A DNA stretch of 64,000 bases from Nitrospinaceae bacterium. Its GTDB lineage: Bacteria; Nitrospinota; Nitrospinia; Nitrospinales; Nitrospinaceae. Both the position numbers and the translations under genes were made by a program. Of the stretch, positions 14,175 to 29,937 are shown piece after piece. Below the pieces are notes generated by a model. It had not been told where the DNA came from. It was given only the letters and a program-made list of their open reading frames with translations, and ran no database searches. The stretch lies in NCBI GenBank assembly GCA_024644405.1, contig JAHELC010000004.1:62001-126000 (forward strand). Reading direction: 5' to 3'. How positions within the stretch are numbered: the stretch's first letter is position 1; each line of letters opens with the position of its first letter.

Positions 14175-15098
14175 TCAATCTTTATTTTGGGACATCCAGT
14201 TCTGGGCCTCGATAAAGACCCGCTTGATCTCCGGAAATTTTTCTTTAATGCCGAGTTCAAGTTTGGAGATAGTTGTTTCCACATTGTTGGATGACAGGTT
14301 ATCTTTAAAATCCAGGCTGAGATTCAGCAGAATATCACGGGGTCCCAGGTGCATCGTTAATATCTCATTGATGTGCAGGACATGGGATTCATCTGCGATT
14401 ATATTTTTTATTCCCGTAAGTACTGTTTCGCTGGCCGATTCCCCCATCAACAGCCCCTTGCATTCAAACGCCAGGCAGGATGCGGTGAAAGCCAGAATCA
14501 GGCCAATGGCTATCGAGGCGATACCATCCAACACAGGCATATGCAGAACATCCCCAAGGTATATTGCGACGCCAGCGACCAGCAATCCGACGAGAGCGGC
14601 AAAATCCTCAAACAGCACTGTGAATATAGCCGGATCCTTGCTTGCCCGGACCGCCTTGATCAGGCTCTGAGCGCCTTTGGTTTTGTAAAACTCTTTGTAG
14701 GCAAAAGCGAATGCCGCCGCTTCAAAAACAATAGAAACACCTATCACAATATAATTTATAAAAGGGTCGTTAACCGGGTGGGGATTTTTAACTTTGGAAA
14801 TTCCCTCGTTGATGGAAATTCCAGCCCCCAAACCAAAAATCAAAATTGCGACCACGAAACTCCAGAAATAAACCTCCATTCCATAGCCAAAGGGGTGGGT
14901 TTTGTCTGCCGGACGTTTGGAGCGTTTCAGGCCATACAACAGCAGCCACTGATTTCCGGTATCCACCACCGAATGGATGGCTTCGCTGAACATGGCTGAA
15001 CTGCCGGTATACGCGGCCGCCCAAAACTTTGAAATGGCGATGAGGCTATTGCCTACAAGGGCCGCGTAGATTGCTTTTTTGGATGAATGCGATGGCAT
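14175..15098 (-). CDS. Cation diffusion facilitator (CDF) family transporter
   Basis: A 307-residue CDF-type inner-membrane antiporter that should export a divalent metal such as zinc, manganese or iron. Five to six transmembrane helices occupy about residues 10-210. The metal-site residues are seen in FSEAIHSVVDTGNQ (helix 2, His-x3-Asp) and FEDFAALVG (helix 5, Glu-Asp), and the C-terminal cytosolic domain (residues 215-307) carries HLGPRDILLNLSLDF. It sits at the end of the minus-strand block that also holds MgtE and two MscS-like channels, 100 bp after the aspartoacylase-family gene, so divalent-cation homeostasis is a shared theme. Confidence 0.87.
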   Translation of the reverse strand: MPSHSSKKAIYAALVGNSLIAISKFWAAAYTGSSAMFSEAIHSVVDTGNQWLLLYGLKRSKRPADKTHPFGYGMEVYFWSFVVAILIFGLGAGISINEGISKVKNPHPVNDPFINYIVIGVSIVFEAAAFAFAYKEFYKTKGAQSLIKAVRASKDPAIFTVLFEDFAALVGLLVAGVAIYLGDVLHMPVLDGIASIAIGLILAFTASCLAFECKGLLMGESASETVLTGIKNIIADESHVLHINEILTMHLGPRDILLNLSLDFKDNLSSNNVETTISKLELGIKEKFPEIKRVFIEAQNWMSQNKD

Positions 15099-15198
15099 GA
15101 AACTTTTTGCTCCTGCGATTAAACTGGGATCGTTTTATTGAGCTCGACGAGGTTTCGTGAAAGAGAGATGCGCTGAATACAATTCTTATGCTTGCCGG

Positions 15199-16218
15199 TC
15201 AATCATAAAATGATTGATAAATGTCTTCTTCTATTTGTTTGATTGATTTCTGAACTTTTCGGGTATTGTGAAAGCTGGCGACGTGATACAGGGCATCTCC
15301 ACCATTGACCAGGGGAAGTTGCAACTGCCCTATGATAATCCCCTCAAAGGGAGCTATGATTTCCCCTCGGGAGGTCCCAAACTGGTCCGTAATTACCCCC
15401 AGTATGTCACCTTCTTTCACATGCGCACCTATTTCTTTTAAGTTATGGATGAGCCCGCTCGTGGGGGACCGCAGCCACTGGGTTCCCCAGGAAATAAATA
15501 TTTCCCGTCGGACATCGTGTTTCTTCTTGGGCAACATTCCAATGGATTGCATGACAGAGAAACAGCCCTGCATTCCAATCTGGATGATTTTTTCGTCAAA
15601 ACGCAGGGCCTCTCCGCCTTCAAACAGGAGCATGGGAATATCCCTTCTTCGGGCCGCCTCCCTTAACGAACCGTCGCGAATGGTGGAATTCAAAATTACG
15701 GGCACTCCAAACTCTATGGCCAGCCGCTTGGCCTCAGCATTGCTCAGGCAGGCACGAATTTGAGGCAGGTTGGTTCTATGGATGGCGCCGGTATGCAGAT
15801 CTATACCGTGAGTGGACTTTTTGACAATTTCCTTCATGAAGATATTCGCCAACCGGGCAGCCAGGGAACCCTTGAGGGATCCGGGAAAGCTTCGATTCAA
15901 ATCCCTGCGATCCGGCAAATACCGGGACAGCATATTGAAGCCAAAGATGTTGACCACAGGAATTGCGATTAAAACCCCTTTCAACTTTTTAAGGGATTTG
16001 TTTTTCAGTATTCGACTGACTATTTCAGTACCATTGATTTCATCGCCATGGATAGCGGCAGAAATAAACAATACCGGCCCGTCTTCCTTGCCGCGGACCA
16101 CTTCCACTGGAATTGAAAGGTCAGTGCCGTCATACAGGCTGGAAACTGCGAGTTCGATTTTACTGCGCTGCCCTTTCTTGATTGAAACGCCACCCATTTT
16201 GAAATCAGAAGTCATCAA
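15199..16218 (-). CDS. Aspartoacylase/AstE-family zinc hydrolase linked to RimK
   Basis: A 339-residue M14-fold enzyme with all expected residues: H57 and E60 in [10 protein letters not shown]142 in GIDLHTG and E200 in [10 protein letters not shown]-terminal beta domain contains [13 protein letters not shown]. The start overlaps the end of the RimK gene by 4 bp. Genes of this family often accompany RimK-type ligases and retropepsin-like RimB proteins; the natural guess is that it removes or trims glutamyl or N-acyl groups added by the ligase. That is inference from context. It is distinct from, and only distantly similar to, the pair at 6.4-8.3 kb. Confidence 0.85.
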
Positions 16219-17120
16219 CCCATCCCGGCCGTTCTGGTATTCCAGGGTTTGGCATCTTTTTCCATAAAGTGAATGATCTTATCGGCAATATCGATTCCAG
16301 TGGCTGTTTCTATGCCCTCAAGGCCGGGAGAGGAGTTGACCTCCATAACCAACGGGCCGTGTGAGGAACGCAAAAGATCGACCCCCGCCAGATTCAGTCC
16401 CATCGTCTTGGCTGAACGAACCGCTGTGCTTCTCTCCTCAGGAGAAATTTTAATGGGTTCAGAGCTCCCTCCCCGATGCAGGTTGGATCGGAATTCACCT
16501 TCCTTACCCTGTCTTTTCATGGAGGCGACGACCTTATCGTTAATGACAAAACACCGGATATCCGCACCTCCCGCTTCCTTAATAAACTCCTGAACCATAA
16601 AATGAGCATCCAGTTCCATAAATGCGCCAATGACGCTTTCCGCCGCCTTATTCGTTTCAGCCAACACAACCCCTTTGCCCTGAGTTCCCTCCAGCAGCTT
16701 GACTACCAGCGGGGCACTTCCGACCAGGTCAATAATATTTTCCGTATGCTTGGTCGAATGAGCAAAACCCGTCACCGGCAAACCGATGCCTTTTTTTGCG
16801 AGAATTTGAAGCGAGCGGAGCTTGTCGCGTGAACGCGAAATGGCCACCGACTCATTCAGGGGATACACTCCCATCATTTCAAATTGACGCAAAATAGCTG
16901 TCCCGTAAAAGGTGTTGGAAGCTCCGATACGCGGAATGACAGCGTCAAATTCATTAAGTATCCGGTCTTTAAAGTGAACCGAGGGTTTGTGTGAAGTGAT
17001 ATTCACATAGCATTTCAAATAGTCGATCACTTCAGCATCGTGCCCTCTTTGCTTCGCCGCCTCCACCAACCTCTTGGTGGAATAAAGTTTTGGTCCTCGT
17101 GATAATATTCCTATATTCAT
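16215..17120 (-). CDS. rimK: RimK-type ATP-grasp alpha-L-glutamate ligase
   Basis: A 301-residue ATP-grasp ligase of the RimK family, which adds glutamates to the C-terminus of ribosomal protein S6 in other bacteria or makes poly-glutamate. The N-terminal domain starts [24 protein letters not shown] follows at about residues 60-68. The ATP-grasp part shows [35 protein letters not shown], the substrate region [11 protein letters not shown] and the metal-binding [14 protein letters not shown]. Length and motifs fit E. coli RimK. It lies 18 bp after the RimB-like protease gene and overlaps the aspartoacylase-family gene. Confidence 0.93.
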
Positions 17121-17138
17121 TTTTGCCTTTCCGGGCCC

Positions 17139-17576
17139 TTATTTCTTCAATAGTAAAAAGGATTTCCCTGAATCCACGATATAGTTGTTCTTTAAAGCAC
17201 TTCTCCCTAAGAGCAATCGAAATCCCATAAGATCCCTGTTCACAAGAGACAATTCTATAGGGAAGACTTTCTCGCCAATTTTTATTTTTGTTTTGATGAC
17301 GGGTCGAACAGATAATTCCCCGTTAGAGCTTTTTATTTCACGCCGGCTGATCATTACAGCCGATGCCTCAATCATGGGGCGCGCTCTTCTTTGTACCGGA
17401 TGGATTTTGAATTTCACAATATTACTCCCTTTGACCACCCTGATATGGGAAACGTGAAGAGCCGAAGTCCTGGCGCCTGTATCCATTTTTGCTTTAATCT
17501 TTTTTATTCCTAATTCAGGAAACGAAACCCACTCTCTCCAGCCAATGATGTCGAGAGTTTTTTCTTTCTTTTTCAT
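17139..17576 (-). CDS. RimB/RloA-like retropepsin-type aspartic protease
   Basis: A 145-residue protein of the family once called ATP-dependent zinc protease (Pfam Zn_protease) and now seen as retropepsin-like. The signature MDTGARTSALH places the aspartate at residue 32. Other family segments are GWREWVSFPELGI and LMGFRLLLGRSAL. In pseudomonads a homologue, RimB, cleaves glutamate tails added by RimK, and the gene here directly precedes rimK (18 bp). A cytoplasmic location is expected as no signal is visible. It is 193 bp downstream of MgtE, the largest gap in the block. Confidence 0.85.
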   Translation of the reverse strand: MKKKEKTLDIIGWREWVSFPELGIKKIKAKMDTGARTSALHVSHIRVVKGSNIVKFKIHPVQRRARPMIEASAVMISRREIKSSNGELSVRPVIKTKIKIGEKVFPIELSLVNRDLMGFRLLLGRSALKNNYIVDSGKSFLLLKK

Positions 17577-17769
17577 AATTGGAGAGAACGTTTGGAATTA
17601 ATAATAAGAAATATGTGATGATTTTTATAACCGCTATCCGATTCCCGTTTGCCCGGTTAAAGAAGAAATTTATCGGACAATTCAACGGAAAACTTTCCCA
17701 CATTATTATAATCAGGATAGTCATTTTTTATACTGTAAAAACCGGTTAATTATAGTATGTATTGAAAAA

Positions 17770-19083
17770 CTATAAAAGGTTGGAAAGTATGGTGGCTATT
17801 CCCAAAAAAGAGAGAAAACCCGCGACATCCGTCACAGTCGTCAGGATAATCGACGAAGCGGTGGCCGGGTCCTGGCCGAGCCGGGTCAGCACGATCGGCA
17901 CGGAAGCCCCGGCGATCCCTGCGGCAACCATGGACAGAACCATGGAAATACCTATAACGAAGGACAAACCCAGGGAGCGACTCCAAAAATAGACGCCTAT
18001 TGAAGTGGTCAAGGCGACAGCGACACCGTTGACAAATCCCACTGAAGCTTCTTTCAGGACAACGGCGGTCCACTGGCGAACGCTGATTTCCTTGAGAGCC
18101 AGACCTCGCATGGTCACTGCCAGGGCCTGGGCGCCTGCGTTTCCGGATTGTCCTGCGACCACCGGCAATAGAATCGCAAGTGCAGTGAACTTGGCAATTA
18201 TACCCTCAAACATACCGACTACTCCGGCAGCCAGAAAAGCTGTCAACAGGTTGATGTGCAGCCAGGGCAAACGTTTTCGGATGGAAAACCCGGGTTTGGA
18301 AAGAGCGCGTTCATCCTTGCTGACACCAAACATGGTTTGAATGTCTACGGTAGCTTCTTCTTCCGCCGCCTTAACGAGGGCGTCATAGCCCACAACGCCA
18401 ATCAGGTGCCCCGAAATATCCACCACGGGTAAATTCGCTAATTTAAATTCTTCCAATTTGGCAACGACTTCCTCCCGAGGATCCGTTGGATTGACCACGG
18501 TTCGTATAGGGAATGAAAGTTCGCTTAAGAGCTGTAACGGCTCAGCCAATGCCAGATCCTGCATATTGACTCGCGAAGTCAGTTGATTCTCTGAATTCAC
18601 CAGGAATATAGTCCGCGTGGATTTATATTTTAAAGTGCGAAGCCTTCTCAGGCATTGCCGGACTTCCATGCTTTCCCGGAAAACATGGAATCGAGTGTCC
18701 ATCAGCCTGCCCGCCGAGTTTTCGGGATAGGTCGCCATGACTTCGAAATCTTTTTTGATGGAGGGGTCCACCAGAGACAGACATCTGTCCCTTTCGTCTT
18801 TATTCATTTGTCCGAGCAAGGTCACCATCTCATTTGGATTCGATTCAATCAGCAAATTTCGAATGACAGGATCAGGAAATTGACTGAAAACAGAAGCAGC
18901 GACATCCGGAGTCAGGCTTTTTAATATGGATACAGCCAAGGGGGTTGATTGGGTAGACAATAACAATCCCGCCTCAGCCGGTTCCAGTTCTTCGATCAGT
19001 TCAATCGCCTCGGAAGGATGATCCAATAGAAACTGACGATTCAAAGCATCAACCGCTGTGTTTGCGTTACCGGTCATCCGCAA
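17770..19083 (-). CDS. mgtE: MgtE-family magnesium transporter/channel
   Basis: A 437-residue Mg2+ channel with the standard order: N-terminal superhelical domain (residues about 15-125), two CBS domains (about 130-250) and a C-terminal five-helix pore domain (about 285-437). Pore-domain signatures are VVAGQSGNAGAQALAVTMRG and GQDPATASSIILTTVTDVAG, the latter carrying the conserved Asp of the central ion site. Magnesium binding between the cytosolic domains closes the channel in known MgtE. The start overlaps the upstream soluble MgtE-like gene by 17 bp, so expression is probably coupled. Confidence 0.93.
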   Translation of the reverse strand: MRMTGNANTAVDALNRQFLLDHPSEAIELIEELEPAEAGLLLSTQSTPLAVSILKSLTPDVAASVFSQFPDPVIRNLLIESNPNEMVTLLGQMNKDERDRCLSLVDPSIKKDFEVMATYPENSAGRLMDTRFHVFRESMEVRQCLRRLRTLKYKSTRTIFLVNSENQLTSRVNMQDLALAEPLQLLSELSFPIRTVVNPTDPREEVVAKLEEFKLANLPVVDISGHLIGVVGYDALVKAAEEEATVDIQTMFGVSKDERALSKPGFSIRKRLPWLHINLLTAFLAAGVVGMFEGIIAKFTALAILLPVVAGQSGNAGAQALAVTMRGLALKEISVRQWTAVVLKEASVGFVNGVAVALTTSIGVYFWSRSLGLSFVIGISMVLSMVAAGIAGASVPIVLTRLGQDPATASSIILTTVTDVAGFLSFLGIATILSNLL

Positions 19084-19921
19084 CTCCCTTGTTTATAATG
19101 GGATTGATATTGGATGATAGGGCCGCCTGAACAAGCCAGGATAACGTTGAGGTGTAAGCGTTCACACAATCTTCCAGTACAGAATCGGCCGGGTTGGATG
19201 AATCGCCGCCGGTGGAGAATGACAACCCATTATGCAGGTTTTTATGAGTTAACATTCCGACATATTTACCTGCACGATTTGTAACAGGCAGAGCATCAAA
19301 ACGATTCCAATCGGTCAAGGAAGCTGCTGATTGAAGAGTGTCGCGGACAAGAATGGATTTGAAATCCGTCACCATAATTTTCGAAACTTTAGTGCCATCT
19401 TTAGCGGTGGCCAAACTCGCCAAACTCAGCAACCCCGCAATGTTTCCATCCGCTTTGATCACACAGGGAGCATACTCGGGAACATCCTTGGAGCTTCGAT
19501 ACGATCTTCGGATATCACCCACCAAGAAAGTCTCAGGGACCGCCGGGTTGTCCGAATCCAACCACGCGCCAACAGTATTGCTTGGGAAAGTCAGTCTTTT
19601 TTTCAACAGGGTCTTCTTGTCATCTGATAAAAGTTTCAGAAACGAATCGAAAGTGGCGCTTGGAATGATTCGAAGCATGGAGAGGGTGGAAGTGGCCTTC
19701 ATACCCTCCATCAGAGTAGCTGACAATTCGGAGTTAAGGATAACAAAACATTGCCCCGTATATTGAGGCGCCATCATATTGAGTAGCCTGGATCCCAATT
19801 CCGGCGGGATTTTTTCGATAAAGGCAACCGAATCCTCCACCGCCAGTTGTTCCAGCATTCGAGCGGCCTCTCGAGGATGCTTTGTTATAAAATTTAAAGT
19901 CACCTGAGGAATTTCATTCAT
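19067..19921 (-). CDS. Stand-alone MgtE-like N-domain plus CBS-domain protein
   Basis: A 284-residue soluble protein that resembles the cytosolic half of MgtE without the pore. Residues about 5-115 form the helical MgtE N-domain pattern (FITKHPREAARMLEQL, then repeated short helices), and 130-235 hold a CBS pair (VGDIRRSYRSS, ALPVTNRAGKYVGMLTHKNL). No transmembrane helix is present. The last 45 residues are not recognised. It overlaps mgtE by 17 bp and the preceding MscS-like gene by 8 bp. A regulator or sensor that binds Mg2+ or nucleotide and acts on the adjacent channels is a reasonable inference. Confidence 0.75.
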   Translation of the reverse strand: MNEIPQVTLNFITKHPREAARMLEQLAVEDSVAFIEKIPPELGSRLLNMMAPQYTGQCFVILNSELSATLMEGMKATSTLSMLRIIPSATFDSFLKLLSDDKKTLLKKRLTFPSNTVGAWLDSDNPAVPETFLVGDIRRSYRSSKDVPEYAPCVIKADGNIAGLLSLASLATAKDGTKVSKIMVTDFKSILVRDTLQSAASLTDWNRFDALPVTNRAGKYVGMLTHKNLHNGLSFSTGGDSSNPADSVLEDCVNAYTSTLSWLVQAALSSNINPIINKGVADDR

Positions 19922-20753
19922 CAGTCATATCCGGAATAATCAATAAAGAAGGCTCCGCATGAAACAATTTTGCGGGAACCGTCATTCTTCCTTCATTTGT
20001 GGACAAAATAATGGAGACCGGGGTCAGCTCGAGAATGACACCCTCTGCGTTGCCAAACCTTACTTTTTGCCCCGGTTTGTAAAACTTTTGAACATGATGG
20101 CCGCTGATCAGATTACTGACCAAATCTTTTGTTCCCAGCCCTAAAGCCAGTGCGAGGCTCCCAAGGATAGCTCCCATCGTAATGGCAAGCAGGGTGATCA
20201 GGAAATTGACTTCAACCCCGATTTGGTCCAGGCCGATAATAATCGCCGTAAAAAGGATGACCCCCTGGACGATGCCTCCCAGAATTTTGCTTTGGGAAAT
20301 ATGGGCAGACGACGTAGCGGATATGGTGAGATCCCTTCCCAGGGAGGCGAACAAAACCCCCGCCAGGATAATCAGGCCCCCCGCCAATAAGCTTGGAAAA
20401 TACGTGACCCATCGGTTGAGCCAAACAGAGAAAGCTGTCAATCCCATGATCTGCGTGGAGATTATGGCAAATACAAGGATGGTGGCCCAAAAAATAATTT
20501 TACTGAAAAGACCGATGAAAGGATTGGATAATCTGAATTTGGCCAGACTGCCTTTTGAAAATAAGCGGGATAATATGCGGTTGAGGATCCGGGTCAGCCG
20601 AATACTCAAAGACTTGAGAATACTGGCAACGACCCAGCCGATCAGCATCAATAATACTGCGCCCAAAAGATTGGGCAAATAGGCGGTCAACTGTTCCAGC
20701 CATTGCCCAATGATTTTTGGAATTTCTTTTAAGAATTCTGATAATTTATCCAT
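19914..20753 (-). CDS. MscS-family small-conductance channel (second of two)
   Basis: A 279-residue membrane protein with about four to five helices (YLPNLLGAVLLMLIGWVVAS, then IIFWATILVFAIIS, LAGGLIILAGVLFA and GVILFTAIIIGL). The MscS pore/beta region begins at LGSLALALGLGTKDLVSNLISG and continues into a beta domain (FYKPGQKVRFGNAEGVILEL). It belongs to the short 'conserved TM helix' MscS group. Such channels release solutes or ions on membrane tension. The stop overlaps the soluble MgtE-like gene by 8 bp and the start is 9 bp after the first MscS-like gene. Confidence 0.82.
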   Translation of the reverse strand: MDKLSEFLKEIPKIIGQWLEQLTAYLPNLLGAVLLMLIGWVVASILKSLSIRLTRILNRILSRLFSKGSLAKFRLSNPFIGLFSKIIFWATILVFAIISTQIMGLTAFSVWLNRWVTYFPSLLAGGLIILAGVLFASLGRDLTISATSSAHISQSKILGGIVQGVILFTAIIIGLDQIGVEVNFLITLLAITMGAILGSLALALGLGTKDLVSNLISGHHVQKFYKPGQKVRFGNAEGVILELTPVSIILSTNEGRMTVPAKLFHAEPSLLIIPDMTDE

Positions 20754-20762
20754 TCCTGCCTT

Positions 20763-21626
20763 CTATAAACTGAAAAACCCTGTTCCCTCTTTTTTCCCCT
20801 GCACTTTAGATTCAATGAGAACAGAATTGGGGATAAATACAAGCTCTCCGTTTTTGTGGCGAACCTGGGATGTGACCGTACCGATTTGCTCTATGACCCC
20901 AGAGTCATCACCAATTTTAACTGAGATCCCATACTTGAAAGTGTCCCGTGCATAGACGCCGGAAATAATATTTTTTGAGACCTCCTTGGTGCCCAGTCCC
21001 AGTGAAAGCGCCAAAGCAACACCAGCAGCAATTAATGTTATTTCCAACAGGCTGTTCAAAAGTGATGTCTCAATTTCCAATTGCTCAAGTACAATCACGC
21101 CGATCACTATAACGAGCACACCATAAGCAAAATTGGATAATGGTTTGCCGTATTCAATTCCAAACCCTTGGACTCCACTGCGAATCAGATTTCTAACAAA
21201 ATGAGCTAAAAGAAGTCCTATCACCGCTATCAGGCTGGCGCCAATCACTTTAGGCAGGTAGAGGACCAGGGATTCGATGGTTCGTGAAACCTTCTCCAAT
21301 CCTAGGGTTTCTGCAGCTGAAATAATAAACGTCAGCATGATGATCCAAAAAGCAATTTTGCCGACTATTTCAGAGGGCTCCATTGTAATACCGGTTTTAT
21401 TTAAAGTGTCCTTGATTCCAACTTTTTCGCTGGCACTATCAACTTTAATCTTTTTCAAGAAAGCCGAAACAATGAACTTGATAAATTTTGAGATAAGATA
21501 GCCAACCAACACAATGATTATGGCGCCAATCAAATTGGGAGTGAACAGGGCTATCTCGGTCCATAAATCTTTCATCACGGCGATAATGGTGTCTTTCCAC
21601 ATCTCAGCTTCTATCTTAAAATCCAT
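20763..21626 (-). CDS. MscS-family small-conductance channel (first of two)
   Basis: A 287-residue paralogue of the next gene, with helices at about residues 25-55 (FTPNLIGAIIIVLVGYLIS), 90-105, 125-150 and 165-185. The MscS segment is ALALSLGLGTKEVSKNIISG, followed by the beta domain (FKYGISVKIGDDSGVIEQIG, then GELVFIPNSVLIES). A good ribosome-binding site (AGGAG) precedes the ATG, and a 13-bp hairpin directly abuts it. Two different MscS-like subunits in tandem could form separate or mixed channels. Position behind an ECF sigma gene suggests stress-controlled expression. Confidence 0.83.
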   Translation of the reverse strand: MDFKIEAEMWKDTIIAVMKDLWTEIALFTPNLIGAIIIVLVGYLISKFIKFIVSAFLKKIKVDSASEKVGIKDTLNKTGITMEPSEIVGKIAFWIIMLTFIISAAETLGLEKVSRTIESLVLYLPKVIGASLIAVIGLLLAHFVRNLIRSGVQGFGIEYGKPLSNFAYGVLVIVIGVIVLEQLEIETSLLNSLLEITLIAAGVALALSLGLGTKEVSKNIISGVYARDTFKYGISVKIGDDSGVIEQIGTVTSQVRHKNGELVFIPNSVLIESKVQGKKEGTGFFSL

Positions 21627-21640
21627 AAAGCAGCTCCTAA

Positions 21641-21669
21641 ATGATTCAAATCCCGTGGATTTGAATCAT
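21641..21669 (-). promoter_or_regulatory. Perfect 13-bp stem-loop next to the mscS ribosome-binding site
   Basis: ATGATTCAAATCC at 21641-21653 pairs perfectly with 21657-21669 around a 3-base loop. On the minus strand the stem ends a few bases before the AGGAG that serves the MscS-like gene starting at 21626. No U-run follows, so it is not a classical terminator; an RNA control hairpin or a dyad operator are the options. Confidence 0.7.
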
Positions 21670-21718
21670 AATCAATAGATTTGACCTTTAGATTTCACTC
21701 TAAGGGTTATTTCAAGGA

Positions 21719-21940
21719 TTAATGTTTTGAAGACTTGGCGATAAATTTGCAGGTGATCTCAGTGAACACCATCCAGAAACGAACAAAAACTAAAAGTATG
21801 ACATCCCTAGTATTGGTCGACTGTTGCGCCTTAGCCATGGTTCGAGCGATTCGGCCCTCATTATCGGTCGCAGCAGTCGGTTGAGATTTCTTAAGTGCTT
21901 TTTCAAAAAACTCTTCAAGATTTTTTTCAGGTTTTTGCAT
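21719..21940 (-). CDS. Small membrane-anchored protein next to the ECF sigma gene
   Basis: A 73-residue protein that I do not recognise. The first 45 residues are charged and hydrophilic (EEFFEKALKKSQPTAATDNE, then RIARTMAKAQQSTNTR); a hydrophobic segment DVILLVFVRFWMVFTEITC at about 46-65 could be a single membrane helix, and the tail is basic. GAGGTAA precedes the ATG. It lies 53 bp after the ECF sigma gene and before the two channel genes. By position and topology it might be an anti-sigma or a channel accessory, but no known anti-sigma motif is seen. Confidence 0.55.
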   Translation of the reverse strand: MQKPEKNLEEFFEKALKKSQPTAATDNEGRIARTMAKAQQSTNTRDVILLVFVRFWMVFTEITCKFIAKSSKH

Positions 21941-21993
21941 CTGATTACCTCATTTATTAGACTTCTCCAGGAGTCGAAAAAGTCACACTTGTT

Positions 21994-22566
21994 TTAATTT
22001 TTTTTCATTTTTTTTTCGTATTGTGTCTTAAACTTCTCCAAAGCCCTGTAAAGCCTCATTTTTGCCGTACTCAGTTTTATTTTATTTGATTCGGCAATCT
22101 CGTTGATCGTTAACCCGGAAATAAATTTGAGAGTGATTATTTTTCTATCCCGACTTGATAATTCATGTAAAATCTCATGGACTAAAGACGCAGAGGAATT
22201 CGACGAATTAAATGTTTCGTCCATGGAGAACTCTCTTTTGATGTTTGCAGTTAATTTTTGACGGGCAATCGAACGATCGATGATTTGTTTTCTTTTGGTA
22301 AAGCAATAATTATATGCGATTCGAAAGAGCCAGGTTCGAAATGATGATTTGTGCTGGAAGGTTTTTAGCTTGTGGAACACTCTTAGGAATATATCCTGGC
22401 AGGCTTCTTCGGCTTCATAAAGGTCGCCCAGCAAATATTGGCAGGTCTTAAATACTGAGGGCTCGTACTTTCTCAGGATCTGCTCAAAGGTTTGCGTTAT
22501 ATAAGGGAGCTCCTCCTTACATTTTTGAATTAATAACTCGTCGCCATCGTTTGAAGGACGGTCCAT
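21994..22566 (-). CDS. ECF-type RNA polymerase sigma factor (head of the channel/RimK block)
   Basis: A 190-residue sigma factor with region 2 at about residues 25-95 (LGDLYEAEEACQDIFLRVF, then SSFRTWLFRIAYNYCFTK) and region 4 at about 130-180 (LSSRDRKIITLKFISGLTIN, then LSTAKMRLYRALEKF). It differs clearly from the sigma factor at 1.0-1.6 kb. It is the first gene of the minus-strand block that runs to 14.2 kb; no zinc anti-sigma follows, only the small single-helix protein. The gene has more A+T than its left-hand neighbours. Confidence 0.85.
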   Translation of the reverse strand: MDRPSNDGDELLIQKCKEELPYITQTFEQILRKYEPSVFKTCQYLLGDLYEAEEACQDIFLRVFHKLKTFQHKSSFRTWLFRIAYNYCFTKRKQIIDRSIARQKLTANIKREFSMDETFNSSNSSASLVHEILHELSSRDRKIITLKFISGLTINEIAESNKIKLSTAKMRLYRALEKFKTQYEKKMKKN

Positions 22567-22808
22567 AAAAACTCATCATATTTTATAAGTTTTTAGATTT
22601 AAAAAAATTAGTTTGGTTTGATTTTGAAATTCTGCTTGGATGATTAATCCTTTTTGGGTCATGTCAGGCTTCGTGGGCCAGTTCAATGAAAATTGTTTTT
22701 AAAGAGGCATAGCTGGGACATAATGACATCTGAAAATTTCTTTTTACAATACTATTATTCAAAGAAATTCCCAATATAAATATAAAACTCACCGGAGGGA
22801 TCCGTGCC

Positions 22809-25022
22809 ATGAAGGTTGCCGTTATATACAACAAACAACAGGATGTGGAAGGCGTGATCAACGTCTTCGGGATGCAGAATCAAGAGACTTATAATCCCCA
22901 CACAGTTGAGAGGGTCGCTTCCTCTTTGGAAAAGGGCGGGCACAATGTCCGCATTGTCGATGGCAATATCAACGTCATCGAGCAGTTGGAATCCTTCATG
23001 CCACGCGTGGTCCAGGGCGAACAGCCGGGAATGGTGTTCAACATGGCCTATGGCATCCAGGGGGTCAGCCGGTACACGCATATCCCTTCACTTTTGGAAA
23101 TGGTGGGGATTCCCTACGTTGGATCCAGTCCCGCCGGGCACGGCATCGCCCTCGATAAAGTGACCACCAAGGTGATGGTCCATGCCTCCGGTTTGCCCAC
23201 CGCTCCCTATTGGGTATTTTTCTCTCCGGATCAGATTCCGGACGACCTGCCTTACCCTGTGATTACCAAACCCAAAATGGAGGCGGTGTCTCTTGGGATT
23301 GAAGTGGTACACAACAAAGCCGATCTGCAGGAAACCATCAGCCGGTTGGTGGAAGAATTCCGCCAGCCGGTTCTGGTCGAAAAATTCATTCCGGGCCGGG
23401 AATTTGCCGTGGGACTGCTCGGCAATCAGGATCCTGAAATTTTACCCGTAGTGGAGATAGACTTGGCAGGAGATCCCAACGCGATACAAACACTGGGTGA
23501 CAAACTCAAGACACCCCGCGAAAAAGTATGTCCGGCCAAGATCGACGACAAGCTTAAGGCTGAACTGGCGCGCCTGACCCGCGAAACGTTTCGCACTTTG
23601 GGGATTTACGATTTCTGCCGGGTTGATTTTCGAATGGATGACCTGGGAAATTTGTATATCCTGGAACTCAACTCCATGGCCAGCCTGGGCACGACCGGTT
23701 CTTATGTGACTTCCGCGAAGGCTGCCGGGTATACGTTCGAGAGTTTGATCAATCGCATGCTGGACGTGGCGGTGGAGCGCTATTTCGGCAAGCAACAGCT
23801 GGAAGCCCTCGGCGAACAGGAACCGCTGGTCTCCGGGTTGATTAAAGGGTTGATTAAAAAATCCTCCACCCCGCTCCATACCCGGCTGCGCAGTTATCTC
23901 CGGGGCAATTTGCCAACTATGGAAACCAGCCTGCAAAAGATGGTCGAGATCAATTCTTATGTCCGTAATATCGACGGGATCAATGCGCTGGGGCAGTGGG
24001 TCGGGAATGCGTTGAGTCGTCTGGGTTTCCAGCGTGAAGTTATCACCCGCGCGGAATTCGGAAACATGCTTTATTTCACAAACCACTCCAGCGACACCAA
24101 CGATATTCTTGTGATCGGGCAATTGGATAACCCTTCCCATTTTCAGGATTTCGTTCCCTTTGCGGAGGACCGCGGAAAAATATACGGCACCGGGGTTTCC
24201 TGCGGGAAAGGCGGGCTGGCCATTCTCCTGACTGCTCTGCAGGCGTTGCGTTATACCCGGTCGCTGAAAAAAGTTAAATGCGGCATTCTGCTTGTGTCGG
24301 ACGAATCCGCCGGCGGACGTTCCTCCAAACCCCTGGTGGTGGACTATGCGTCCAAATCACGCGCGGTTGTGGGCCTTCAAGGAGCCGGCCTTGCGGGAGA
24401 ATTGATAGTGTCCACTTCAGGGCAGATCAAGTTCAATATAGAAATCAACCGGGTGGCCCGCAAAGGGAAGGCGGACTTCAAGGATAAATATGACCTGGTG
24501 AGTTTTATTTCCCAGAAAATTACCAATTTGCGAAAGCTGAACGACGAGGTGGAAAACCAAAGTGTGACCATCACCAGTATCGACACACATGGAGTCGGCG
24601 ATCAGCCGCCGGATCATGCGTCGCTGGTGCTCCATATCCGTTACCGTAAACCGGAACAGAAAGAGGCGTTGGAAGCCCAGGTATTCAAGTTGTTTGAAGT
24701 GCCGGCCACCAGCCCCCTGAAAGTCCACATCAGCCGTGGATCGTCCCGTAAGCCTCTGCTTGAAACTCCCGCCAATACCCGGTTCTTTGAAAAAATCGGT
24801 CAATTGGCTAAGGTTCTTGAAGTGCGGGTCCAGAAAATTCACACCGATGTGCCCTCAATCCTGTCCCCCATTTCTCCGGAGATTCCCCACATTGAAGGAC
24901 TGGGACCGGTGACCGGCGGCTTAGGAACCAAGAACGAGTATGTGGTACGCGACAGCCTGATCGATCGGTCTGTTTTATTGGCTTACACGATCGTTCAGTC
25001 CACGAAAGATTTTTCAGTATGA
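22809..25022 (+). CDS. ATP-grasp (D-Ala-D-Ala ligase-like) enzyme fused to an inactive M20 peptidase domain
   Basis: A 737-residue two-domain protein. Residues 1-330 form an ATP-grasp ligase like D-alanine:D-alanine ligase: YGIQGVSRYTHIPSLLEM, PVITKPKMEAVSLGI, VEKFIPGREFAVGLL and a metal-binding FRMDDLGNLYILELNSMASLG. Residues about 375-737 have the M20/carboxypeptidase G2 fold, but the zinc ligands are gone: the usual His is Q438 (GQLDN), the bridging Asp is C465 (GVSCGKGG), the second Glu of the DEE motif is S500, and the C-terminal His is absent. The first Glu (E499) remains. CCGGAGGG precedes the ATG. The stop overlaps the next gene (ATGA). A peptide-like ligase with a non-catalytic binding domain is my inference. 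Confidence 0.8.
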   Translation: MKVAVIYNKQQDVEGVINVFGMQNQETYNPHTVERVASSLEKGGHNVRIVDGNINVIEQLESFMPRVVQGEQPGMVFNMAYGIQGVSRYTHIPSLLEMVGIPYVGSSPAGHGIALDKVTTKVMVHASGLPTAPYWVFFSPDQIPDDLPYPVITKPKMEAVSLGIEVVHNKADLQETISRLVEEFRQPVLVEKFIPGREFAVGLLGNQDPEILPVVEIDLAGDPNAIQTLGDKLKTPREKVCPAKIDDKLKAELARLTRETFRTLGIYDFCRVDFRMDDLGNLYILELNSMASLGTTGSYVTSAKAAGYTFESLINRMLDVAVERYFGKQQLEALGEQEPLVSGLIKGLIKKSSTPLHTRLRSYLRGNLPTMETSLQKMVEINSYVRNIDGINALGQWVGNALSRLGFQREVITRAEFGNMLYFTNHSSDTNDILVIGQLDNPSHFQDFVPFAEDRGKIYGTGVSCGKGGLAILLTALQALRYTRSLKKVKCGILLVSDESAGGRSSKPLVVDYASKSRAVVGLQGAGLAGELIVSTSGQIKFNIEINRVARKGKADFKDKYDLVSFISQKITNLRKLNDEVENQSVTITSIDTHGVGDQPPDHASLVLHIRYRKPEQKEALEAQVFKLFEVPATSPLKVHISRGSSRKPLLETPANTRFFEKIGQLAKVLEVRVQKIHTDVPSILSPISPEIPHIEGLGPVTGGLGTKNEYVVRDSLIDRSVLLAYTIVQSTKDFSV

Positions 25023-26647
25023 ACCCGAAAATCATAGAAGGCTGTTTTGAACCCACTGAGGACGGCAAATGCGCGTGGTCCCCGAACGGCATGGTAACCA
25101 CCGCTTTTCCGGAGGCAACGCGCGCCGGGGTTGAGGTATTGGAGGCGGGCGGGAACGCCATCGATGCCGCCTGCGCGGCGGCGTTCGCGCTTTGCGTTTG
25201 CGAACCTCAAGCCAGCGGTATCGGTGGACAAAGCATGGTCCTGCTTCATACTCAGGATAAGAATCTGGCGCTCGACGGATCCAGCCGCGTTCCCTCGCTG
25301 GCACATCTCAGCCGGATGGAGTCTGCGCAAATGTTGACAGGTTACCGTGCGGCCACGGTTCCCAGCACGCCGGCGCTTCTCGGATACATGCATTTTACCT
25401 ATGGCCGCGCCAGTTGGCGGACGGTTCTGGAACCCGCCATTCGCATTGCCAAAGAGGGTTACCGCATCACTGAATTGCAACACCGTTTGCAAAAACGGGA
25501 GCAGGAGGCGCTTCTCAAAATTCCCTCTCAATCGGGCGCCCGGTATTTCCTGAAGGAGGGAAAAGAGCCCTATGCCGTGGGCGATCAGTTTGTGCAACAC
25601 GACCTGGCCCAATTGCTGGAATTTATGTCGGAGGAGGGAGTTCAAGGATTTTATATGGGTGAGCCGGCCCGGCAGATCGATAAAGACATGGAGGAGAACG
25701 AAGGGTTTCTGCGCTACGAAGACATGGCGCTGATCCCCTGGCCGGTTTTACGGAACCCCGTTCACCGCAGATACCGGGGGCTTTCCGTGTACACCCTGCC
25801 CCCGCCCGCCGCGGGCCGCACGCTTCTGTTGATTCTGCTCATGTTGGGAAATCTCCCGTCCAAATTTTTGAAGGAGCGTTCTCCGGAGTCCTACCACTTT
25901 GTGGCCGAAACCTTTCGCAAGGCGCTGTTAAACCGGAAAGAACGGCCGTACGATCCCAATATTTATCCGCAATTGCCGCAGGACAAACGCATCCTCAGTC
26001 TCGACTTCGCAAAAATGCTGGCGCGGTCCATTCACGATGAAATGGACCCGACCCTGCCCATGGTGGATTTGTTTCCCGCCGTCAACGATACCACCCACTT
26101 GTCCGTGATGGACAAGCAGAACAATACGGTGGGAATCACGCAATCGATTGAACGGGTCTATGGCTCGCACTCCGCCGCGAGGGGTTTGGGTTTCCTGTAT
26201 AACAACTACATGAGTTCGTTGGAAACGAAGGATCCTTCCCATCCGTATTACCTGCGACCCAACGCGATTCCCTGGAGCATGTCGGCGCCCATCATCATAT
26301 TTCGCAGGAAGCAACCCTGGCTGGTGGCAGGCAGTCCCGGCAGCGAACGTATTTTCTCCGCCGTGGCTCAGTTTCTTTCCCATATTCTAGACGGCAACCT
26401 CCCGATGTCGGAAGCCATGACCGCCCCGCGCATTCATTGCTCGATTGGCGGCAAACTGAGTTATGAAGAGGGGCGTTTGGATGACAAAGTCGTTCAGTAC
26501 CTTAAGGATGTGGGTTATAAAATGGATGCTCGGGAACCCTACGCCTTTTATATGGGAGCCATCCACGCCATCATGAAAACGCAAACCGTCGAGGGATTTC
26601 AGGGTGTCGCCGAAATCCGGCGCGACGGCACCGCGGCGGGTGTGTAA
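25019..26647 (+). CDS. Gamma-glutamyltransferase (GGT) family protein, no signal peptide
   Basis: A 542-residue Ntn-hydrolase of the gamma-glutamyltranspeptidase family. The N-terminal region has GGNAIDAACAAAFALCVCEP and SGIGGQSMVLL. The autoprocessing and catalytic threonine is T358 in DTTHLSVMD, dividing the protein into chains of about 357 and 185 residues, as in the family. GSPGSERI matches the oxyanion-loop region. Unlike classical GGT it has no export signal, so it would act in the cytoplasm. It overlaps the ATP-grasp fusion gene by 4 bp and is followed after 3 bp by the N-formylglutamate amidohydrolase-like gene. The three are surely one transcript. Confidence 0.85.
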   Translation: MNPKIIEGCFEPTEDGKCAWSPNGMVTTAFPEATRAGVEVLEAGGNAIDAACAAAFALCVCEPQASGIGGQSMVLLHTQDKNLALDGSSRVPSLAHLSRMESAQMLTGYRAATVPSTPALLGYMHFTYGRASWRTVLEPAIRIAKEGYRITELQHRLQKREQEALLKIPSQSGARYFLKEGKEPYAVGDQFVQHDLAQLLEFMSEEGVQGFYMGEPARQIDKDMEENEGFLRYEDMALIPWPVLRNPVHRRYRGLSVYTLPPPAAGRTLLLILLMLGNLPSKFLKERSPESYHFVAETFRKALLNRKERPYDPNIYPQLPQDKRILSLDFAKMLARSIHDEMDPTLPMVDLFPAVNDTTHLSVMDKQNNTVGITQSIERVYGSHSAARGLGFLYNNYMSSLETKDPSHPYYLRPNAIPWSMSAPIIIFRRKQPWLVAGSPGSERIFSAVAQFLSHILDGNLPMSEAMTAPRIHCSIGGKLSYEEGRLDDKVVQYLKDVGYKMDAREPYAFYMGAIHAIMKTQTVEGFQGVAEIRRDGTAAGV

Positions 26648-26650
26648 TCC

Positions 26651-27421
26651 ATGTCCCGCTTCCCCGTTCTATTATCCATCCCCCACGGCGGCACCGAAGT
26701 GCCTTCGGAAATCAGCGACCGGGTGACGATATCCGCCAAAGATCAGTTCGAAGACAGCGACGCCTGTACCCGGGAAATTTACGGCCTCGAAAACGAAGTG
26801 CTGGCACAGGTGCAGTCGCCGATGGCGCGGGTGTATGTCGATATGAACCGGTCGGCAGAAGACCGGCCTCCGCGGAATCCCGACGGCGTTGTTAAAACCC
26901 AGACCTGCCACGGTAAAATCATTTACCGGTCTGGCCGAGAACTGGACGACGCCTGGACCCGGCGAATTCTCGATACTTATTATTTTCCGTACCATCAATC
27001 CATCACCACCGCGTTGAGCGAACACGCCGGGCTTGAGCTGGCCCTGGACTGCCATTCCATGGAGAAGGTGGCGCCGGTCATTTCCCCTGATCCCGGTCAG
27101 CCGCGCCCGCTCATTTGCCTGGGCACCAATCACGGTAAAAGTTGTCCGCCGGAATTGGCGGATCGATTGGCAGAATGTTTTCGTGAAGGATTTGGCCTGG
27201 AGGACAAAGATGTCGTGATGAACAAACCCTTCGCCGGCGGTTACATCACCCGGACTTACGGCGAGGGGCCCTTGCCCTGGATGCAGGTGGAAATGAACCG
27301 CAGCCTCTACCTGTCTGAACCCTGGTTCGATGCTGAAACCCTCACCGTCCAGCCTGAGCGCCTCAAACAACTCAACCAGAACTTCCGCAAAACCCTTTCC
27401 CTGTTTTTTGGATCATCATGA
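26651..27421 (+). CDS. N-formylglutamate amidohydrolase family protein
   Basis: A 256-residue zinc hydrolase of the HutG-type N-formylglutamate amidohydrolase family. Signature pieces are LLSIPHGGTEVP at the N-terminus, VYVDMNRSAEDRP, LDCHSM and VEMNRSLYL near the C-terminus; His and Glu residues in these provide the likely zinc site. No other histidine-degradation gene is nearby, so the natural substrate is probably another N-acyl or amide form of glutamate. It is third in the coupled ATP-grasp / GGT-like / FGase-like operon. Confidence 0.83.
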   Translation: MSRFPVLLSIPHGGTEVPSEISDRVTISAKDQFEDSDACTREIYGLENEVLAQVQSPMARVYVDMNRSAEDRPPRNPDGVVKTQTCHGKIIYRSGRELDDAWTRRILDTYYFPYHQSITTALSEHAGLELALDCHSMEKVAPVISPDPGQPRPLICLGTNHGKSCPPELADRLAECFREGFGLEDKDVVMNKPFAGGYITRTYGEGPLPWMQVEMNRSLYLSEPWFDAETLTVQPERLKQLNQNFRKTLSLFFGSS

Positions 27422-27513: not shown

Positions 27514-28305
27514 ATGAGAACCCTTCTTTCCTTTATTCTTTTTTTCAGTATGGCCGCCACGGCGCAGGCGGGCATTCAAACCCAGGAGGTCCAGTATTCC
27601 TCCGGCGGTGCAAAACTCAACGGTTATCTGGCCTGGGACGATGCCGTGCAAGGCAAACGCCCCGGGGTGCTGGTGGTCCACGAGTGGTGGGGCCATAACG
27701 AGCACGCCCGTGAACGCGCGCGCATGCTGGCGGAACTGGGTTACACGGCGCTGGCGGTGGATATGTACGGCGACGGCAAATTTGCCGACCATCCGGAGAA
27801 AGCCGGCGAGTTCATGAACGCGGCGTTCAAGGACTGGAAGGGCAGCCAGGCGAAATTCAATGCGGCGAAAAAATTATTACAGAAACACCCTACGGTTGAC
27901 CGGAAGCACATTGCGTCGATCGGGTTTTGTTTCGGCGGTGCCGTTTCGTTGCGCATGGCGCGCGAAGGGGCGGACCTGGATGCCGTGGTGGCCTTTCACA
28001 GCGCATTGCCGACCGAGCCGCCCGTCAGCAAGGGAAAGGTGAAGGCGGCGGTGCTGGTTCTCAACGGCTCGGAGGACGCCTGGCTGGATCCCAAAGCCGT
28101 GGCTGCCTTCAAGCAGGAGATGTCAACCGCGACACAGGATTTCAAGTATCTCACCCTGGCAGGGGCCAGGCACAGTTACACCAACAAGCGGGCCGACGAT
28201 TTCAGCAAGAAGTTCAAGATGGACAACCTGAAATACAACAAACAGGCGGACAAGCGCGCCTGGTCGGCCATGCAGACTCTCTTCAAGCGGGTCTTCGCAA
28301 AATGA
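27514..28305 (+). CDS. Exported dienelactone hydrolase family protein
   Basis: A 263-residue alpha/beta hydrolase. I chose the ATG at 27514, preceded by CAGGAG, because it begins a clear signal peptide (RTLLSFILFFSMAATAQA); a longer frame from 27418 adds an unlikely leader. The DLH triad is visible: Cys in IGFCFGGA, Asp in GSEDAW and His in ARHSYTN, with VHEWWG as the oxyanion strand. The Cys nucleophile is the mark of this family. Export to the periplasm is predicted. Substrate unknown. It lies 92 bp beyond the FGase-like gene and may be transcribed separately. Confidence 0.85.
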   Translation: MRTLLSFILFFSMAATAQAGIQTQEVQYSSGGAKLNGYLAWDDAVQGKRPGVLVVHEWWGHNEHARERARMLAELGYTALAVDMYGDGKFADHPEKAGEFMNAAFKDWKGSQAKFNAAKKLLQKHPTVDRKHIASIGFCFGGAVSLRMAREGADLDAVVAFHSALPTEPPVSKGKVKAAVLVLNGSEDAWLDPKAVAAFKQEMSTATQDFKYLTLAGARHSYTNKRADDFSKKFKMDNLKYNKQADKRAWSAMQTLFKRVFAK

Positions 28306-28509: not shown

Positions 28510-29937
28510 GTGAGTGGAGGATTTGAAACTCTCAGTCTGTTGTACCTGGCTCTGGCGCCGGGTATCGCGCTGGCAGTTTATATCTATTATTCCGACAAGT
28601 GGGAACCGGAACCGAAGGCGCTGGTGATCCAAAGTTTTCTGCTCGGCGGACTGGCCTGTTTTCCCAGTTATTTTTATGAAGACGCTTTTTTAAAGTTTCT
28701 GGATTGGGAAGGAGTTGTGGTTTCCAGAGACTATTCTCCCTGGTGGCATAAAGCGGTTTATGCTTTTTTCGGCGTGGCGTTGGCGGAGGAGTTCTGTAAA
28801 TTTTTATTTCTGAAAGCCTTTATCTACGACAAACGGGATTTCAGCGAGCCCTTTGACGGGATCGTTTACGGAGGCATCGTGGGATGCGGTTTTGCCACCG
28901 TGGAGAACCTGTTTTATGTTCTTCCCCTGGGACAGGAAACCGGAATCATCCGGATACTCACGGCGTTACCCGGTCATGCTTTTGAAGGGATGATCCTGGG
29001 TTACTTCATGGGCCGGGCCAAGTTCAGTCCGGCGCCCGAAAAGGAATTGGTGAAGGGACTGGCGGTCGTCGTGACCCTTCACGGAATTTATGATACGGCC
29101 GTGTTATCTGCTGGCGAGTGGTCTTTTGCAATCATCTTTGCAATGGTTTTTCTGGGTTTGTATCTGGGTCTGAAAGCCAAACAGGAATTGGAGAAGCATT
29201 CGGAGGTCATCGAATATTCAACAGAGGAATATATTTTTATAAAAAAGGGCCGCAAAATGCGAACGCTTGTATTAAGGAATATCCGCAATTTGCTGTCGAA
29301 TGGCAAATTGAACCTGAATGACGCTCTAATAGTCAAAAAAACCGGCAAAACCAAAACGGTTAAGGAAATTTTTTCATCCGGAGTTGTCTCCCAATATGCC
29401 GGCATGGTCAAGTGCCCAACCCGGGGCCTGCTGGTCAGGGATTTTTTGATTTTGTATGGGCTGACGTTTGGTTTTTATTTTTATTTCTGGTTTCTCAGCA
29501 ATTACCGGAACTTCAGGAATTACAAGCGCATCAAGATCAATCCCGAATGGATCACCCTGGGACTGTTTATCGCCGCGGTCATCCCGTATTTTGTTTATGG
29601 GGTGTTTCTTGGAAATTTCGGAAAAACGGCATTCGATCCCTGGGTGAAAACTTGTTTGGACCTGACCATGGCGGCCATTCCCTCCTCTTTTTTGTTTTTT
29701 CAGCTTCGCATTATCAAACGCTTTTTAAAAAGAAAGTTGAAAGGAACATTCAACGTCTCTTTGGTGGTCGCCGGTTTTTTCCTTTTCAATGCGATAGCCA
29801 AATTACTGCCACCGGGTATTTCTCATTATTTGATTTTTGTAATGGTCCTGGTTGTGTATGAGGGAATAGTGCTGGCTCTTGTCCAGAGAGATCTCAACCG
29901 GTACTGGCTTCAGGAGAGGGGAGATACGTGTTCCTGA
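28510..29937 (+). CDS. PrsW-family intramembrane metalloprotease with C-terminal membrane extension
   Basis: A 475-residue polytopic membrane protein starting at GTG with GAGGAG just upstream. Residues 1-230 match PrsW/CAAX-type glutamic metalloproteases: AEEFCK (catalytic Glu pair), GFATVENLFY, LPGHAFEGMILGYF and LHGIYDTAVL supply the Glu, Asn and His residues of the active site. The middle (about 240-300) is a soluble stretch with EYSTEEYIFIKKGRKMRT and SNGKLNLNDAL, similar to GYF-2-like modules. The last 160 residues contain four more helices (FGFYFYFWFLSNYRNFRNY resembles DUF4234). PrsW homologues cut anti-sigma factors within the membrane; no partner is adjacent. Confidence 0.8.
   Translation: MSGGFETLSLLYLALAPGIALAVYIYYSDKWEPEPKALVIQSFLLGGLACFPSYFYEDAFLKFLDWEGVVVSRDYSPWWHKAVYAFFGVALAEEFCKFLFLKAFIYDKRDFSEPFDGIVYGGIVGCGFATVENLFYVLPLGQETGIIRILTALPGHAFEGMILGYFMGRAKFSPAPEKELVKGLAVVVTLHGIYDTAVLSAGEWSFAIIFAMVFLGLYLGLKAKQELEKHSEVIEYSTEEYIFIKKGRKMRTLVLRNIRNLLSNGKLNLNDALIVKKTGKTKTVKEIFSSGVVSQYAGMVKCPTRGLLVRDFLILYGLTFGFYFYFWFLSNYRNFRNYKRIKINPEWITLGLFIAAVIPYFVYGVFLGNFGKTAFDPWVKTCLDLTMAAIPSSFLFFQLRIIKRFLKRKLKGTFNVSLVVAGFFLFNAIAKLLPPGISHYLIFVMVLVVYEGIVLALVQRDLNRYWLQERGDTCS

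What the first reader, a model, noticed from the sequence alone, without database searches (positions are those of the whole stretch)
22809..27421. Coupled operon: ATP-grasp ligase fused to a dead M20 domain, cytoplasmic GGT-like enzyme, and an N-formylglutamate amidohydrolase-like enzyme
Seen: 4-bp and 3-bp junctions bind the three genes into one unit. The first protein joins an intact D-Ala-D-Ala-ligase-like ATP-grasp domain to an M20 domain whose metal ligands are Q438, C465 and S500 with the last His gone. The GGT-like enzyme keeps its catalytic Thr (T358) but has no export signal. Together this is one ligase, one peptide-binding pseudo-domain and two glutamyl-directed hydrolases: the outline of an undescribed cytoplasmic pathway for a small glutamate-containing peptide or amide.
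Basis: partly seen in the sequence, partly recalled or inferred. Interest (0 to 1): 0.72.

Follow-up and report, generated by a model that had tools for sequence, protein, structure and literature searches.

The report
Conserved ligase–pseudopeptidase operon with two amidohydrolases
Three tightly packed genes encode an ATP-driven amide-bond-forming enzyme fused to a long-dead peptidase domain, plus two amide-cutting enzymes; the same set recurs in marine nitrifying bacteria and in planctomycetes, so it is very probably a real but uncharacterised small-molecule pathway.

Summary
Genes at 22809-25022, 25019-26647 and 26651-27421 encode a Ddl-like ATP-grasp/M20 fusion, a signal-less GGT-fold protein and an FGase-family protein, with a 4-bp overlap and a 3-bp gap. 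The M20 metal ligands are lost in both groups (the deep group keeps only one), yet the domain folds like carboxypeptidase G2 and is under purifying selection: an old pseudoenzyme, not a decaying one. A gammaproteobacterium has ligase, GGT and FGase without M20, so the trio is the core. The interpretation needs correction: the ligase lacks D-Ala-site residues, and GGT residues that hold glutamate are replaced (Arg114 and Asp433 to Ser), so 'glutamyl-directed' is unproven. Best reading: a cytoplasmic make-and-recycle pathway for an unknown amide conjugate. Neighbours (MgtE, RimK/AstE, cation efflux, MscS) hint weakly at ion or osmotic physiology.

The parts
22809..25022 (+). Fusion protein, 737 aa: Ddl-like ATP-grasp amide ligase plus C-terminal M20 pseudopeptidase domain
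   Evidence: full-length orthologues; deep sister group
22809..23798 (+). ATP-grasp ligase domain (residues 1-330). Keeps the equivalents of Ddl K144, K215, R255, D257, E270, N272 (K154, K232, R271, D273, E286, N288, invariant); Ddl S150 and Y216 are V160 and L233
23874..25019 (+). M20 pseudopeptidase domain (residues 356-737): carboxypeptidase G2 fold with metal ligands lost, under purifying selection
25019..26647 (+). GGT-fold Ntn hydrolase, 542 aa, no signal peptide; processing site D357/T358; Arg114 -> S88, Asn411 -> E378, Gln430 -> Y397, Asp433 -> S400
26651..27421 (+). FGase (PF05013) metal-dependent amidohydrolase-like protein, 256 aa; H12, D35, D37, H135, E214, R217 invariant in 19 relatives
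22723..22750 (+). Promoter-like sequence (ATGACA-16-TACAAT, 10 of 12) upstream of the operon; consensus match only
   Evidence: 8 found in the region against 4.0 expected; weak

Best explanation
The operon makes and takes apart a small cytoplasmic amide conjugate. The ATP-grasp domain activates a carboxylate as an acyl phosphate and couples it to an amine. The fused M20 domain no longer hydrolyses anything and serves as a binding or dimerisation module that presents a substrate to the ligase. The GGT-fold protein self-cleaves before Thr358 and hydrolyses (or transfers) an acyl group from the conjugate or a precursor. The FGase protein removes a second N-acyl or terminal group. Shown: gene identity, order, overlaps, conservation across phyla, loss of M20 metal ligands with purifying selection, retention of ligase ATP/Mg residues and loss of D-Ala-site residues, altered GGT glutamate site. 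Inferred: that all three act on one compound, the direction of each reaction, and the role of the pseudo-domain. Unknown: the compound. A role in ion or osmotic physiology is a weak inference from neighbours.
For: Order ligM20-GGT-FGase is kept in Nitrospinota and Nitrosomonadaceae wherever the contig reaches that far, except one contig (L047) without a detectable FGase, and in Planctomycetota at 34-35% identity. ATGA overlap between ligase and GGT in nearly all examined relatives, 3-bp or overlapping GGT/FGase junction in most. Core trio without M20 in a gammaproteobacterium (L086). A related ligase sits two genes downstream of a related GGT on Bradyrhizobium plasmids. Ligase catalytic residues invariant. 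M20 dN/dS 0.03-0.15 in close pairs. M20 model pLDDT 83, best PDB match carboxypeptidase G2. The genome has its own separate Ddl-like gene and no other GGT, so this is not misread housekeeping. GGT homologues with non-glutamyl substrates exist (LmbA/Ant6, PMC5519988), and GGT Asp433 mutants become hydrolases or acylases (PMC8062742).
Against: No substrate, metabolite or activity data. The full-length structure model was poor (pLDDT 58), so domain contacts are unknown. Co-location does not prove a shared substrate. Three Nitrospinota loci (L031, L032, L039) have about 1 kb between GGT and FGase.
Confidence: 0.45

Rival explanations
1. Glutamate-specific version: the ligase joins glutamate to an amine, and the GGT and FGase are true gamma-glutamyl and N-acyl-glutamate hydrolases that recycle it.
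For: M20 domain closest to glutamate carboxypeptidases. FGase fold. Glutamate-ligase RimK and AstE genes next to the operon in the window, L031, L044 and L089. Some working GGTs carry Ser at the Arg114 position and Glu at the Asn411 position (PMC8062742).
Against: Asp433, which binds the alpha-amino group, is Ser/Ala/Thr in all 22 aligned members. FGase is far below the HutG cut-off. The ligase substrate site is unlike any of known specificity.
Confidence: 0.2
2. Protecting-group or tailoring pathway for a natural product: the ligase attaches a group that the GGT-fold enzyme later removes, as GGT homologues act in lincomycin and anthramycin pathways.
For: Precedent of GGT homologues with unusual chemistry (PMC5519988). 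Rhizobial plasmid relatives lie with lysine 2,3-aminomutase; planctomycete relatives are tandem ligases next to a KamA-like gene.
Against: No other biosynthetic genes (NRPS, PKS, oxygenases, exporters) recur beside the operon in 31 loci.
Confidence: 0.15
3. Tagging of a macromolecule (protein, peptidoglycan peptide or poly-amino-acid), like RimK/RimB or the proposed role of the Anbu operon.
For: Next to the Anbu set in L031, L032 and L048 and to part of it in L047; RimK/AstE next to it in four loci. Alpha-E co-occurs with the fusion in Nitrospinota (17 both, 6 fusion only, 8 alpha-E only, 46 neither).
Against: Co-occurrence weakens when only genomes of 2.8 Mb or more are used (p = 0.02). Linkage is in a minority of genomes; in the window's own genome alpha-E is on another contig.
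Confidence: 0.12
4. Catabolic operon: GGT and FGase break down an imported amide and the ligase is a side activity.
For: Two of three enzymes are hydrolases. Cytoplasmic location.
Against: No solute importer is constant beside it. The ligase is always first and is the most conserved part (182 of 330 columns invariant against 84 of 382 in M20).
Confidence: 0.08

Closest known systems
D-alanine-D-alanine ligase (Ddl)
   Same: ATP-grasp fold, ATP/Mg and acyl-phosphate residues
   Different: Ddl S150 and Y216, which shape the D-Ala site, are V160 and L233 in the family; about 30% identity; the genome has a separate Ddl-like gene
Carboxypeptidase G2 / glutamate carboxypeptidase, family M20
   Same: Whole-domain fold (Foldseek E 6e-27, TM 0.75) and sequence (NCBIfam PRK07338 and PRK06133)
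   Different: Metal ligands His112, Asp141, Glu176, Glu200, His385 lost or unconserved; fused to a ligase
Gamma-glutamyltransferase (EC 2.3.2.2)
   Same: Ntn-hydrolase fold, Asp/Thr processing site, catalytic Thr
   Different: No export signal; Arg114, Gln430, Asp433 and Gly484 replaced
LmbA/Ant6 GGT homologues (PMC5519988)
   Same: GGT fold used for a non-glutathione, non-glutamyl reaction; Asp-Thr autoproteolysis
   Different: Those cleave a C-C bond in alkylproline biosynthesis; no ATP-grasp/FGase partners of this kind known to me
N-formylglutamate amidohydrolase HutG (PF05013)
   Same: Family fold and putative metal-site residues
   Different: 109 bits against the equivalog cut-off of 279; no hut genes in the operon
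RimK-RimB and Rlo operons (PMC12239564), Anbu operon (PMC6376114)
   Same: ATP-grasp amide ligase co-encoded with hydrolases; RimK and Anbu sets are sometimes neighbours
   Different: Different ATP-grasp families; no retropepsin or proteasome-like subunit in this operon

Membership tests
D-alanine-D-alanine ligase | ATP-grasp catalytic residues (Lys144, Lys215, Arg255, Asp257, Glu270, Asn272) | tested here: met
   invariant in 25 sequences
D-alanine-D-alanine ligase | D-Ala-site Ser150 and Tyr216 | tested here: not met
   V160 in 25 of 25, L233 in 23 of 25; below all Ddl NCBIfam cut-offs shown
M20 metallopeptidase | M20 fold | tested here: met
   Pfam 2e-9, Foldseek to carboxypeptidase G2
M20 metallopeptidase | two-metal site ligands | tested here: not met
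   for the near group; for the deep group, which keeps only His112 of the ligands plus the base Glu175
Gamma-glutamyltransferase | Thr nucleophile with Asp/Glu-Thr processing site | tested here: met
   D357/T358, invariant Thr
Gamma-glutamyltransferase | donor-site Arg114 and Asp433 | tested here: not met
   S88 and S400; Arg114 -> Ser alone occurs in working GGTs (PMC8062742)
Gamma-glutamyltransferase | gamma-glutamyl hydrolysis or transfer | not testable with these tools
   needs an assay
HutG N-formylglutamate amidohydrolase | curated equivalog score | tested here: not met
   109 bits, cut-off 278.75
HutG N-formylglutamate amidohydrolase | FGase family domain with conserved putative metal site | tested here: met
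   PF05013 6e-52; H12, D35, D37, H135, E214 invariant
ATP-grasp amidoligase operons (Iyer et al. 2009) | ATP-grasp ligase co-encoded with hydrolases | tested here: met
   the paper itself was not held, so whether it lists this operon is unknown
N-acetylglutaminylglutamine amide synthesis (ngg/asnO) | acetyltransferase domain fused to ATP-grasp (from memory) | tested here: not met
   no acetyltransferase domain in protein 1

The most novel reading that the evidence does not exclude
An undescribed biochemical pathway: an ATP-grasp ligase that depends on a pseudopeptidase domain, working with a re-specified GGT-fold hydrolase and an FGase on an unknown conjugate that matters to marine nitrifiers and planctomycetes.
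Probability: 0.4. Interest if true: 0.7.

Novelty: new variant of a known kind. Interest (0 to 1): 0.52.

Why it matters
A peptidase fold that lost its metals yet has stayed attached to a ligase across phyla suggests a reused substrate-binding module; I found no description of such an M20 pseudoenzyme in the papers held. The operon would point to an unknown metabolite in Nitrospinota, which include the main marine nitrite oxidisers (general knowledge), and it shows that database names such as gamma-glutamyltransferase and N-formylglutamate amidohydrolase should not be taken as functions for these genes.

Tried and rejected
Full-length structure of the fusion: low confidence, not used. Reading the fusion as the cell's Ddl: rejected, a separate Ddl-like gene is present. 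Canonical GGT for glutathione: not supported (no signal peptide, donor-site residues changed). The idea that the M20 domain is decaying in one lineage: rejected by dN/dS and by loss in both deep groups. A tight link to the Anbu operon: real in three or four loci, but weaker after allowing for genome size. The 27418 start of the next ORF as a fourth operon gene: rejected as likely spurious, because a signal-peptide start lies at 27514. Woeseiaceae, Phycisphaerales and Planctomycetota contigs of the OFTM set (L035-L037) as evidence of spread: set aside, since they nest with OFTM Nitrospinaceae L048 and may be misbinned; the Planctomycetota claim rests on the deep group instead. Ddl outgroups in the tree were too long-branched to root it. 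Literature searches for the combination found nothing on point. Comparison of the M20 model with viral proteins gave nothing useful.

Full report
Observation. Pfam names them Dala_Dala_lig_C plus Peptidase_M20, G_glu_transpept and FGase. The first two overlap by 4 bp and the last two are 3 bp apart. The following DLH-family ORF probably starts at 27514 with a signal peptide and is not part of the unit. The window lies in a Nitrospinota genome, judged from its closest named relatives.

Distribution. Neither is met. With a family profile the fusion is in 23 of 77 Nitrospinota and 13 of 125 genomes of the family of Nitrosomonas marina. Even samples of 369 genomes of that class and 399 of that phylum gave, outside this family, one divergent fusion (L084) and four stand-alone ligases. 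In a sample of 294 Planctomycetota (the phylum of the genome behind L037), five genomes have a full-length sister fusion at 34-35% identity, each followed by GGT (43-46%) and FGase (38-42%) in the same order, and one more is cut by a contig end. In the ligase tree the marine Nitrosomonas proteins fall inside the Nitrospinota group with moderate support (93/93 and 94/89), which suggests transfer. OFTM contigs labelled Woeseiaceae, Phycisphaerales or Planctomycetota (L035-L037) nest with an OFTM Nitrospinaceae contig and may be misbinned.

Linkage. Where a contig reaches far enough, ligM20, GGT and FGase lie in that order, except in L047, where no FGase was found. The ligase-GGT junction is a 4-bp ATGA overlap in 16 of 20 loci examined and a 1-bp overlap in the other four; GGT-FGase is 3 bp apart in most. 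L086, a gammaproteobacterial genome, has the ligase, GGT and FGase without any M20 domain, again with a 4-bp ligase/GGT overlap. So the trio is the core and the pseudo-domain an accessory.

The M20 domain. Against carboxypeptidase G2 the metal ligands His112, Asp141, Glu176 and Glu200 correspond to positions 438, 465, 500 and 524. Across 25 proteins these hold N/Q/H/S, R/C/H/T/Y, S only, and S/R/Q/N/G; no His lies at the His385 position. In the deep group His112 and the general base Glu175 are kept, but Asp141 is Ser, Glu176 is Gly, Glu200 is Arg, and His385 is variable. The two-metal site is therefore absent in both groups. Yet the domain evolves slowly (dN/dS 0.03-0.15 in close pairs, against 0.03-0.07 for the ligase half), is modelled well on its own (pLDDT 83, pTM 0.83), and matches carboxypeptidase G2 over its whole length. 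It is a maintained pseudoenzyme.

The ligase. The equivalents of Ddl K144, K215, R255, D257, E270 and N272 are invariant, while S150 and Y216 are V160 and L233 (roles of the Ddl residues from general knowledge). It should activate a carboxylate with ATP, but not make D-Ala-D-Ala; the genome has a separate Ddl-like gene.

The GGT. The processing site D357/T358 and the nucleophile are kept. The donor-site residues are not: Arg114 -> Ser88 (His in one), Gln430 -> Tyr397, Asp433 -> Ser400 (Ala or Thr in four), Asn411 -> Glu378; the same pattern holds in the planctomycete set. Published mutants show that Asp433 changes abolish transfer and leave hydrolysis, and Asp433Asn creates glutaryl-cephalosporin acylase activity; Ser at the Arg114 position and Glu at the Asn411 position occur in other GGTs (PMC8062742). 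So a hydrolytic acylase is more likely than a classical transferase, and glutamyl specificity is open. It is the only PF01019 gene found in this genome.

The FGase. It is far from the HutG equivalog (109 bits against 279) but keeps its putative metal-site residues in all 19 sequences.

Surroundings. In 31 loci, MgtE-type transporters occur near the operon in 11, in several different arrangements and in both Nitrospinota and Nitrosomonadaceae; RimK with AstE in 4; cation efflux in 4; a protein-kinase-like gene in 4; the Anbu set or part of it in 4. In the window the order is cation efflux, AstE, RimK, MgtE pair, MscS pair, ECF sigma, then the operon. No importer or natural-product gene is constant. 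This is a hint towards ion or osmotic physiology, no more.

Conclusion. The most likely working is a make-and-recycle cycle for an amide conjugate in which the M20 pseudo-domain helps the ligase handle a substrate. Membership in Ddl, M20 peptidase, GGT and HutG each fails at least one tested feature, so these names should not be used as functional assignments.

Noticed in passing
L031:13795-17912, L032:11219-14268, L048:3663-7720, L047:117-2488: The Anbu operon (CP_ATPgrasp_2, Alpha-E, proteasome-like Anbu, transglutaminase), or part of it in L047, lies beside the ligM20 operon.
   Followed up: partly
window 14175-22566: Cation efflux, AstE/AspA, RimK, MgtE pair, MscS pair and an ECF sigma factor lie directly upstream on the minus strand; MgtE recurs near the operon in 11 of 31 loci.
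   Followed up: partly
L060:4282-9044 (Bradyrhizobium plasmid): Lysine 2,3-aminomutase, GGT, 7TM_transglut membrane protein and a related stand-alone ligase in a row on a rhizobial plasmid.
   Followed up: partly
L112, L113, L114, L115: Two tandem Ddl-like ligases beside a lysine 2,3-aminomutase-like gene in Planctomycetota.
   Followed up: no
L110:5521-7968: 7TM_transglut fused to the same kind of ligase in one ORF.
   Followed up: no
L031:11830-12891, L032:7899-8954, L039:11827-12778: About 1 kb inserted between GGT and FGase; in L032 and L039 it holds an antisense ORF of about 105 codons with a signal-like start.
   Followed up: partly
L039:6049-7800: A second GGT gene with a signal-like N-terminus directly upstream of the operon.
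   Followed up: no
L038:7115-7879: A DDAH/arginine-deiminase-like gene about 120 bp upstream of the operon on the same strand.
   Followed up: no
L035, L036, L037: OFTM contigs assigned to Woeseiaceae and Planctomycetota whose ligM20 nests with an OFTM Nitrospinaceae contig; possible misbinning.
   Followed up: partly
window 28510-29937: PrsW-family intramembrane protease gene downstream of the operon.
   Followed up: no
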